NCBI GenBank assembly: GCA_020086605.1
Contig: JACBWW010000028.1
Location: 9,245,004 to 9,309,003 of the forward strand
Length of the DNA: 64,000 nucleotides
Direction of reading: 5' to 3'
Origin: Lanius collurio
Taxonomy: Eukaryota; Chordata; Aves; Passeriformes; Laniidae
This document shows, one piece after another, positions 42,969 to 45,659 of this stretch; the first letter of the stretch is position 1; the number at the start of each line of letters is the position of its first letter. The notes beneath the pieces were generated by a model. The model saw only the letters and a list, made by a program, of their open reading frames with translations. It was not told where the DNA came from and searched no databases. Position numbers and translations under genes: made by a program.

Positions 42969-43270
42969 TGTTGCTATTGGGGAACTCTTGCAACAAGTAT
43001 TATACCGCGAGACATGTAGAAATGAAATATGGAACGGTATTGGGTGGATGTTCAGAGATGTTTATTTCTCTCAGCTGCATGGCATCAGGCCTGCTGGTCA
43101 TCTCTCTAGTCACGGGACCCCCTGGCACTTTTCCCTGGCCCGGGAATCCCCACCAACCAATCTGGACACAGCATCCAGGCACACATGACCTGGGAGCAGG
43201 AAGCAAGGGCAAACCCTGTTCGTCCAGAGTCCCTTGCCTTAGGACCTCCCAGCAGGGAGGTATCTCCACA
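42969..43270 (-). repeat. 3' LTR of the Y-box-carrying provirus
   Basis: Same TG...CA ends and block order as the 5' LTR. AATAAA is at the complement of 43061-43066. Confidence 0.85.
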
Positions 43271-43285
43271 TCTCACCCTTTTGTT
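43271..43285 (-). other. Polypurine tract next to the 3' LTR
   Basis: In - sense, AACAAAAGGGTGAGA directly abuts the TG start of the 3' LTR, the expected position for plus-strand priming. Confidence 0.6.
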
Positions 43286-43610
43286 TTTACTAAAAGAGAT
43301 TTGAAACTTAACATTGGAAACAACTGGATAAACATAGGAAAACAAGAACAATTTCAAAAGAAAACAAGCTATTTTCCCCAGCTCCCAAATGTCCAAATAG
43401 ATTTTTTTTCTCTGGAGCATCTTAGGTCTGGCAGAAGGGAGACAGGACTCTCTGAGCATCTTTCATGGGGAAACTGAGGCAGGAATGGATTTCTTCCATT
43501 TGTACCTGTTGGAACTTTTAACAATGACAGTTAATTTCTTCCCTCCCTCCTATTTATCCCTCCTTTGGTATTGGAGAGGAATTGTGGGGAAAGGGAATTA
43601 CATAGGGGAG
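43286..43610 (-). other. Provirus segment between the cold-shock frame and the 3' LTR
   Basis: About 325 bases with no recognisable env or 3' accessory gene. There are A/T-rich runs and no poly(A) tail of a processed pseudogene. Confidence 0.5.
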
Positions 43611-44363
43611 CTATGGGGTGAAAAACGGATTAGGGATGAATTGGGGATGGGATGAATTTAGGAAAGGGCTCATATTGGGTATAGGGTAATAGGGAAGATA
43701 AGGAGTGGGAAAGGGAGGTAGCTGATATGGATATGGTTTATAATTTTGTGCATACCAACTGCCTTTGACTGGAATACCCTTAGGCCCTGTCACGTGGGCT
43801 GCCTGCAGGCCTTTTCTTCCTTGTATGATGTCAAATTCTACAATTTCTCCATGTCCCAAGCTTGGAATATATTTTTAGGGGTTATTTTTCATTATGGCAG
43901 TTTGATGCACAAAAACATCTCCTCTAGTGTCCTATCTGGTTATAAACCTGTAATGGTTCTTTACATTATACCATTTGACTGTTCCTAAAACTTTAGCTAC
44001 TATGATGTTTTCCTTTTTCCGTGCAGCAGCTGTTCTGTGTTATCTCGCTGTGTTACTGCTTTCACTTTGGCTTTCGCTTGCCCTCGTGCTGGGGCTGCCG
44101 CCGCTGCCGGCATGCCCTTGCTTCAGGGTCCCAACTTCCCGGGGCAGCCCTCGAAGCCGCGGGCCAGGCTGTGCTGTGGCTGCTGGCTCTTCCGCCGCTG
44201 GCCACAGCTGTGCTTCGGCCGGGGCCCCGCGTGGTGGCTCCTCTGTGCCCAGCAGTGGGCCCTGTTCCAGTGTGGGTTTGGGCTCTGCACGGTTCCGCTC
44301 CAGCTCGGGGCGGCACACCGTGGTCTCCCGCTTTGCTATGGAAACTGCCACCATGGACGCCAC
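43611..44363 (-). pseudogene. Y-box-type cold-shock domain with Ala/Pro-rich N-terminal region, broken
   Basis: Cold-shock domain at about 43758-44018, with a shape close to vertebrate YBX1/2/3: AKVLGTVKW, then VFVHQTAI, KNNP.KY, GEIVEFD and VTGPKGIPVKGS. Y-box proteins bind mRNA and single-stranded nucleic acid. The RNP2-like motif DVFVHQ (43902-43919) is intact. RNP1 reads NHYRFI (43941-43958) where cellular proteins have NGYGFI. Stops lie at 44040-44042, 43932-43934 and 43875-43877. There are no introns, although cellular YBX genes split this domain. The same frame runs upstream through an Ala/Pro/Glu-rich ~107-codon stretch, as in Y-box N-termini. After the domain comes a Pro/Tyr/Phe-rich tail, not the usual basic/aromatic islands, ending at TAG 43611. 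This frame differs from the gag frame. LIN28 and CSDE1 domains fit less well. Confidence 0.85.
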
Positions 44364-44563
44364 TGGCTGCCGCTTGAATGCTGTTTTTGGGCTGCCGCAT
44401 GCCGCGTGGTGCCAGGTGGCTACTCCCGCTCTGTGGCACCACTTTTTGTGAGCAGCTTTTTTTGGAAGATACTGCTGCTAAATTTCTTTCACCACTTTTC
44501 ACCGTAAGGATGCCTCAGAGAGCTCTAGGTATGTCCTCCCACACATGGTGCCAGGCTGGGCCA

Positions 44564-45211
44564 TCACCACGGGTCTCTTGCTGCTGCACTGCTCCCACCA
44601 TGCCTGATATCTCTGCCAACACAGCAGCCTGCACTGGCTCGCGGTTCCTGGCTGCCCACGGGGGTTGCCTCTCTGCTGCATGCGACCCACAGCACCCGCG
44701 GCACCTGCCATGCCGGTCCCTCCTTTGTTGGTTGAGTGGTAGGGGGCTCTGAGCTAGGGATGAACTCCATGGTAAGGTGCAGACTCCTGGGAGCACTGGG
44801 CACCTCTAACGTGGGCACCTCTGCCGGCACGGGCAGGGGGAACCCTGCAGCCGCAGTCACGGGCTCCTGGAGTGGCCACTGCTTGGTCTTAGCCGTGCGA
44901 TGGCAGTCAGTGGGACCATGCACATGATTTGAAAGAGCTTCTTCTGTTACAGGAAATGCACAGAAAGGTTCTATCACTAGTTTATCTTTTGATTGAGCTA
45001 TCATCTCGTCCAAGATCTCCACCCAAAAATCTAGGGTACCCACAAAAGGGGGATTAATGTCAAAAAGCAAATCTCGAGAAACATGAGGGAAACTTTTAAA
45101 AAGTCAGTCAAAGAACTGTTCTCGTTGTCCCAAATCAAGCTTTGCATTTTGCTTCATTAGGATTTCTTTAACTTCTAGGTAAATTTCCTTCTGTGTCTTT
45201 GAGAGCCCCAT
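44564..45211 (-). pseudogene. gag remnant (matrix-like N-terminus, then Pro-rich segment)
   Basis: An ATG at 45211-45209 begins Met-Gly, an N-myristoylation context typical of retroviral Gag. It is preceded by about 125 bases of leader after the primer-binding site. The first ~90 codons have a helical, charged matrix-like composition with spaced aromatic residues. TGA at codon 36 (45106-45104) interrupts the frame; reading continues to a stop at 44564. The later part is rich in Pro, Ala, Glu and Ser. The gag assignment rests on position and character, not on a firm family match. Capsid, nucleocapsid and pol are absent. Confidence 0.55.
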
Positions 45212-45336
45212 TTCCCAGGATTCCTCCGTAGTCCAGAAAGTACGGACAAACCAAGACGAGAAGAGAATTCAGAATTTGCTGACAATTCAGTGTTGCTGTA
45301 TTCCTGGCCTTCAGAAATCATCATCAGGGGTCGATT

Positions 45337-45354
45337 GCCCACATTCTTCCACCA
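45337..45354 (-). other. Candidate retroviral primer-binding site
   Basis: In - sense, two bases after the 5' LTR, the sequence is TGGTGGAAGAATGTGGGC. Its TGGTG start and GTGGG part resemble a degraded lysine-tRNA primer site of betaretrovirus type. The identity of the tRNA is uncertain. Confidence 0.45.
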
Positions 45355-45356
45355 TT

Positions 45357-45659
45357 TGTTGCAATCAGGGAGTTCTTACAACAAGAATTATACCGCGAGA
45401 CATGTACAAACAAAATATGGAATGATATTGGGTGGATGTTCAGAGATGTTTATTTCTCTCAGCCGCATGACATCAGGCCTGCTGGTGATCTCTCTTGAGT
45501 CACTGGATCCCGAGCTCTTTTCCCCAGCCCAAGAATCCCCACCAACCAATCTGGACACAGCATCCAGGCACACATGAGCAGGGAGCACAGAGCAAGGGCA
45601 AACCCTGTACATCCAGGGTCCCCTCCCCCAGGACCTCCCAGCAGGGAGGTATCTCCACA
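45357..45659 (-). repeat. 5' LTR of the Y-box-carrying provirus
   Basis: Starts TGTGGAGATACC and ends TTGCAACA in - sense. It has AATAAA (complement at 45449-45454). About 40 differences from the partner LTR over 303 bp by hand count. Confidence 0.85.

What the first reader, a model, noticed from the sequence alone, without database searches (positions are those of the whole stretch)
42969..45659. Provirus that appears to have captured a host Y-box (YBX-type) cold-shock domain
Seen: two same-orientation LTRs, near-matching flanking duplications, a primer-binding-like site and a polypurine tract enclose only 2.1 kb, holding a Met-Gly gag-like start and an intronless Y-box-type cold-shock domain. 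No pol or env is recognised. This is the layout of an acute transducing retrovirus (partial gag joined to a host gene). I know of no described retrovirus carrying a Y-box protein. A virus-borne RNA-binding cold-shock domain could have served RNA packaging or translation. Inference: it was mobilised in trans by a complete helper.
Basis: partly seen in the sequence, partly recalled or inferred. Interest (0 to 1): 0.9.

Follow-up and report, generated by a model that had tools for sequence, protein, structure and literature searches.

The report
Old provirus carrying Y-box cold-shock domain
A short, broken ancient provirus, probably in a bird genome, carries a piece of a host RNA-binding gene (a Y-box cold-shock domain) joined to a tail of unknown origin, and the same domain-plus-tail unit turns up in other DNA, which suggests that it spread as a unit.

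Summary
42969-43270 and 45357-45659 are a same-orientation LTR pair on the minus strand (266 of 300 aligned bases identical) with a 5-of-6 flanking duplication, a TGG primer-site-like start and a purine-rich 3' tract. No pol or env was recognised. The internal 2.1 kb holds an intronless Y-box-type cold-shock domain; two of its pieces match solved YBX structures separately.

The same domain-plus-tail occurs in four other proteins from short, unnamed public contigs. One, P0004, is open across the domain and matches the window at E 9e-62. The family separates from YBX1/YBX2 (99/96 support, 7 rows). So this is probably not one late pseudogene but a diverged unit that spread.

Not shown: that the relatives sit between the same LTRs; that the 5' open frame is Gag (no Pfam, PDB or protein-database relative); the host species; which YBX paralogue was the donor. 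The gag-like and domain frames are out of register today.

The parts
45357..45659 (-). 5' LTR (303 bp), TG...CA; AATAAA at 45449-45454
   Evidence: AATAAA read
42969..43270 (-). 3' LTR (302 bp), TG...CA; AATAAA at 43061-43066
   Evidence: AATAAA read
42963..42968 (.). left copy of flanking duplication, GTCATG
45660..45665 (.). right copy of flanking duplication, GTCATT (5 of 6)
45337..45354 (-). primer-binding-like site starting TGGTGG, 2 bases inside the 5' LTR; tRNA not identified
   Evidence: read directly
43271..43288 (-). purine-rich tract directly against the 3' LTR (holds one C and one T)
   Evidence: read directly
45107..45211 (-). Met-Gly start of open frame, gag-like by layout only
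   Evidence: no Pfam match; PDB only designed-ankyrin matches without a passing stretch
44567..45103 (-). continuation of the same frame after one stop, 179 codons, Pro-rich second half; gag-like by layout only
   Evidence: no match
44043..44477 (-). G+C-rich open stretch in the frame of the cold-shock domain; open length in the region not beyond chance (150-codon run, P 0.12)
43743..44006 (-). Y-box-type cold-shock domain, intronless, two stops
43557..43742 (-). Pro/Tyr/Phe-rich tail, absent from YBX, shared with P0001, P0002, P0004 (P0005 more distant)
43289..43556 (-). 3' region between tail and purine tract, no recognised coding

Best explanation
An old, defective, non-autonomous LTR provirus (6-bp duplication, so class II/ERVK-like by that one criterion) on the minus strand, without recognised pol or env, that carries a captured Y-box cold-shock domain joined to a new Pro/Tyr/Phe-rich tail. 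Shown: LTR anatomy, the domain, its intronless state, its place inside the element, and four other sequences with the same domain and tail. Inferred: the domain came by reverse transcription of a spliced YBX-family mRNA into a retroviral genome; the chimera was transcribed from the LTR and translated as a 5' gag-like protein fused to the domain or as a separate product; its RNA was packaged and reverse-transcribed in trans by a complete helper; the domain bound RNA and helped the element's RNA, as cellular YB-1 is reported to help retroviral RNA.
For: LTR pair and outer duplication; left LTR's own flanks 0 of 6. Two domain pieces match YBX1/2 separately. One alignment of P0004 runs through domain and tail, 44006-43557, 61% of 150, E 9e-62. 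Tail identity 28-29 of 43 with P0004, P0001, P0002. Over 78 columns where YBX1 and YBX2 agree, window (25 changed) and P0004 (19 changed) share 12 changed columns, 7 with the same new residue; shuffling gives 6.1 and 0.54, and 0 of 5000 shuffles reach 7. Family split from YBX1, YBX2 and fish Ybx2 at 99/96, 7 rows. No exact repeat of 9 or more bases between 43271-43640 and 44000-44560, and no A run over 8. YBX1 is reported to be required for HIV and MMTV production, through viral RNA stability and Gag-RNA complexes (PMC8903895, introduction passage).
Against: No relative is known to be flanked by these LTRs. The gag-like frame has no detectable relative. Gag-like and domain frames are out of register now. 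One element only was found in the window. Right LTR's own flanks match 4 of 6. In the domain alone the window is about as close to YBX1 (57 of 86) as to P0004 (59 of 87), and nearer YBX1 in one of three pieces. Tree rows P0001 and the window piece fill under half of the columns. The fold of P0004 is of low confidence (mean pLDDT 46). Helper and function are untested.
Confidence: 0.66

Rival explanations
1. A separate retropseudogene of a Y-box mRNA landed later inside an ordinary defective provirus.
For: The domain is intronless and has stops.
Against: No A run over 8 and no exact repeat of 9 or more bases in the two flanking stretches compared (imperfect repeats and wider stretches not tested); the domain is not followed by an arginine-rich YBX region but by a tail shared with other sequences.
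Confidence: 0.08
2. The donor was not YBX itself but an existing host gene or pseudogene family that already had the domain and this tail; the provirus captured a member, or the relatives are copies of that family and not proviruses.
For: No LTR could be seen beside the relatives, whose contigs are 505-695 nt and unnamed.
Against: P0001/P0002 and P0004/P0005 seem to read the end of the tail in different frames (inferred from the residues), as expected of decayed dispersed copies; no named protein with this tail appeared among 11 hits, though only proteins of about 61-194 aa were candidates and only 7997 candidates were scored.
Confidence: 0.18
3. Two independent solo LTRs happen to flank host DNA.
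For: Internal region has no recognised pol or env; right LTR's own flanks match 4 of 6.
Against: Left LTR's own flanks match 0 of 6, outer ends 5 of 6; TGG start and purine tract at the right ends.
Confidence: 0.04
4. The domain resemblance is chance or convergence.
For: Single pieces are below Pfam's cut-off; a chytrid protein with a Pro-rich tail also matches the profile (P0006, E 3e-8).
Against: Piecewise matches to YBX at 1.6e-6 and about 2e-12; P0004 to YBX1 2.2e-41.
Confidence: 0.01

Closest known systems
Acute transducing retroviruses (truncated gag joined to a host cDNA; recalled)
   Same: LTR-bounded, no recognised pol or env, spliced host domain inside, would need a helper
   Different: Cargo is an RNA-binding cold-shock domain, not a growth-control gene; cargo diverged and apparently in two lineages; gag identity and in-frame fusion not shown
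Host-gene transduction by endogenous retroviruses, such as FAM8A1 (recalled; one paper listed, not read)
   Same: Host sequence inside a provirus lineage
   Different: Different gene and host group; here LTR linkage in other copies is untested
Y-box proteins YBX1/YBX2
   Same: Cold-shock domain at 57 of 86 (YBX1) and 55 of 87 (YBX2) residues over three pieces
   Different: Arginine-rich C-terminal region replaced by a Pro/Tyr/Phe-rich tail
Class II (ERVK-like) avian LTR elements
   Same: 6-bp duplication (5 of 6), TG...CA ends (criterion in PMC6523648 section 2.2)
   Different: No pol to place it; no named LTR family could be compared here

Membership tests
LTR provirus | Two same-orientation LTRs with TG...CA ends | tested here: met
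LTR provirus | Target-site duplication at outer ends | tested here: met
   GTCATG/GTCATT, 5 of 6
LTR provirus | Primer-binding site complementary to a tRNA | tested here: inconclusive
   TGG start in place; tRNA not identified; no tRNA gene in window
LTR provirus (complete) | gag, pol, env | tested here: not met
   no Pfam match for pol, env or gag in 16 pieces scanned
Class II / ERVK | 6-bp duplication | tested here: met
   5 of 6; criterion from PMC6523648
Class II / ERVK | Reverse transcriptase phylogeny | not testable with these tools
   no pol recognised in the element
Acute transducing retrovirus | Spliced host coding sequence inside LTRs | tested here: met
Acute transducing retrovirus | Truncated gag fused in frame to the host sequence | tested here: inconclusive
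   gag-like frame and domain frame out of register; gag without relatives
Acute transducing retrovirus | Several copies with the same LTR-cargo junction | not testable with these tools
   no bird genome held; relatives are short contigs that could not be read
Y-box protein | Y-box-type cold-shock domain | tested here: met
   relative P0004
Y-box protein | Arginine-rich C-terminal region | tested here: not met
   Pro/Tyr/Phe-rich tail instead
Processed pseudogene inside a provirus | Poly(A) tail and own flanking duplication | tested here: not met
   exact repeats in two stretches only

The most novel reading that the evidence does not exclude
A lineage of betaretrovirus-like bird elements took the RNA-binding domain of the very host factor (YB-1 family) that retroviruses such as MMTV and HIV are reported to depend on, kept it with a new tail through at least two diverged branches, and used it as its own genome-RNA-binding module, beside or in place of a zinc-finger nucleocapsid.
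Probability: 0.2. Interest if true: 0.87.

Novelty: new variant of a known kind. Interest (0 to 1): 0.64.

Why it matters
Retroviruses are known to capture host genes, best known for growth-control genes (recalled). An RNA-binding Y-box domain that persisted and diversified as mobile cargo would be a capture kept for the element's own life cycle, and it involves a host factor that retroviruses are reported to need for RNA stability and Gag-RNA complexes (PMC8903895, passage). In the listings of my ten full-text searches (one search showed 20 of 48 papers) I saw no title or abstract start that describes a cold-shock or Y-box domain in a retrovirus; subscription papers and repeat libraries were not searched.

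Tried and rejected
Rejected: late pseudogene insertion, two solo LTRs, chance resemblance. Led nowhere: viral contigs with the gag-like piece, the domain piece, A1 and P0004 (4, 9, 28 and 15 pattern matches, none confirmed); an LTR pattern in viral contigs and genome contigs (0); A1 in genome contigs (19 pattern matches, none confirmed); phages with P0004 (62 records, all below 60% identity; of 20 rows listed, 7 are annotated as cold-shock proteins). Donor paralogue: YBX1 and YBX2 score the same against P0004 (144.9 and 144.7 bits), and the eight positions that differ between them are split; YBX3 was not compared. Rfam and tRNA scans of the window: nothing. Other window ORFs of 110 aa or more: 20 of 57 outside the element were scanned, none with a Pfam match at 0.01. 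Fold of P0004 on A4: mean pLDDT 46.3, pTM 0.35; five strands of three or more residues in the domain part (pLDDT of its ten-residue blocks 38-64), none in the tail. That fits a cold-shock barrel followed by a disordered tail but is too weak to count, so no structure search was run.

Full report
What is there. The element lies on the minus strand. Its LTRs are 45357-45659 (5') and 42969-43270 (3'). One search aligned 304 positions, 269 identical, 23 transitions, 12 transversions, 5 gap columns, K2P 0.126; four of those positions lie beyond the LTR end, so LTR proper is 266 of 300. At neutral rates of about 2-3e-9 per site per year (recalled, not tested) that is roughly 20-30 million years. The outer flanks read GTCATG and GTCATT (5 of 6). 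Each LTR's own flanks match 0 of 6 (left) and 4 of 6 (right); one search had printed the right inner flank one base off. A 6-bp duplication is the class II/ERVK criterion used for songbirds (PMC6523648, section 2.2). A TGG start two bases inside the 5' LTR and a purine-rich tract, holding one C and one T, against the 3' LTR were read directly. Seven pieces of the element gave no other copy in the window (best other match 19 bases, E 0.015).

The host. A recalled CR1 LINE peptide finds two remnants, at 1384-1563 (E 4e-17) and 57759-57944 (E 2e-12), which fits a bird or other sauropsid. The CR1 end motif is no more frequent than chance (4 on both strands, about 5.6 expected). No host gene was named: 20 of 57 ORFs of 110 aa or more outside the element were scanned, none with a Pfam match at 0.01. 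So 'bird' is likely but not proven.

The 5' frame. An ATG-Gly frame begins at 45211 and, after one stop, stays open for 179 codons to 44567. That is unusual for the composition (4 of 1000 simulations; in-frame stops in 44931-45211 1 against 5.8 expected, P 0.02). It has no relative in Pfam, in PDB for the longer piece, or in the protein database (104 candidates, none at E 0.01; only proteins of about 98-313 aa were candidates). For the 35-residue start, PDB gave only designed ankyrin repeats without a passing stretch. The name gag rests on layout alone. The G+C-rich stretch before the domain (44041-44500, 63% GC, CpG observed/expected 0.62 against 0.13 for the window) is open but not beyond chance (P 0.12).

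The domain. Read in pieces between stops, 43935-44039 matches YBX1 (6lmr, E 1.6e-6) and 43611-43874 matches zebrafish YB-1 and YBX2 (E about 2e-12). Identity over three pieces is 57 of 86 to YBX1, 55 of 87 to YBX2 and 59 of 87 to P0004 (sums). There is no intron; P0007, P0008 and P0010, which look like Ybx2 genes read into an intron, suggest that the cellular gene has one inside this domain (inference). In the domain and tail (43531-44039) there are 4 in-frame stops against 9.9 expected (P 0.03), while the longest open run alone is not unusual (P 0.08). The gag-like frame is in another register, so the locus cannot now make the fusion.

The tail and the relatives. After the domain, YBX proteins have an arginine-rich region (recalled; seen in P0009). 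Here the sequence is rich in Pro, Tyr and Phe. A search with the 87-residue piece found two proteins, P0001 and P0002, 70 and 71% identical across domain and tail. A profile search found 11, of which four are this family: P0001, P0002, P0004 (77% to P0001) and P0005 (49%). The other seven are two fungal proteins, one unnamed EukProt protein, a fish Ybx2 and three Logan proteins that look like Ybx2. Only 7997 candidates were scored. P0004 covers the domain without a stop and aligns to the window in one stretch, 44006-43557 (61% of 150, E 9e-62). The tail alone matches at 28-29 of 43 residues. Over 78 columns where YBX1 and YBX2 agree, window and P0004 both changed at 12 and to the same residue at 7; shuffles give 6.1 and 0.54 on average, and a fraction of 0.0012 and 0 of the 5000 shuffles reach the observed values. 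In a tree of 7 rows the window piece, P0001, P0004 and P0005 separate from YBX1, YBX2 and fish Ybx2 at 99/96, and the window piece pairs with P0005 at 90/89 (two rows under half filled; P0002 left out). Hence probably two lineages of the unit. The ends of the tails seem to be read in different frames in P0001/P0002 and P0004/P0005, which suggests decayed copies.

What this means. A single late pseudogene inside one provirus would be expected to run on into YBX sequence, carry poly(A) and its own duplication, and have no relatives sharing a foreign tail. None of these was seen, within the limits of the repeat test (exact repeats, two stretches). The better reading is a captured Y-box domain that spread as mobile cargo. 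For that reason a host gene family with the same tail remains a serious rival.

How it may work. Inferred: LTR transcription, translation of the domain either behind the 5' frame or on its own, packaging and reverse transcription by a helper. YBX1 is reported to be needed for HIV and MMTV production by promoting viral RNA stability and so Gag-RNA complexes (PMC8903895, introduction passage; the primary papers were not read, one is not held). A betaretrovirus-like element carrying its own copy of that domain would make sense in this light. This is a hypothesis. The predicted fold of P0004 is of too low confidence to add to it.

Known or new. Host-gene capture by retroviruses is known; this cargo did not appear in the listings of ten full-text searches (listings only, showing 20 of 48). 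Of the papers opened, PMC6523648 and PMC11009239 do not contain 'cold shock' or 'Y-box' in their main text; of PMC8903895 I saw passages. I file it as a new variant of a known kind.

Noticed in passing
window 1384-1563 and 57759-57944: Remnants of a CR1-type LINE, found with a recalled CR1 peptide; they point to a bird or related host.
   Followed up: partly
window 44041-44930: G+C-rich block inside the element (63% GC, CpG observed/expected 0.38-0.62 against 0.13 for the window); could be part of the captured host sequence or ordinary element sequence.
   Followed up: partly
window 24001-26000: G+C-rich stretch (59%) with imperfect CG-rich tandem units at 24664-24714, possibly a promoter CpG island of a host gene.
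   Followed up: no
P0006 (Obelidium mucronatum protein): A chytrid cold-shock protein with a Pro-rich stretch after the domain and the same short string KGLQAANVTGP; probably convergence.
   Followed up: no
phage records H1-H20: 7 of 20 listed phage records carry a gene annotated as a cold-shock protein under the match.
   Followed up: no
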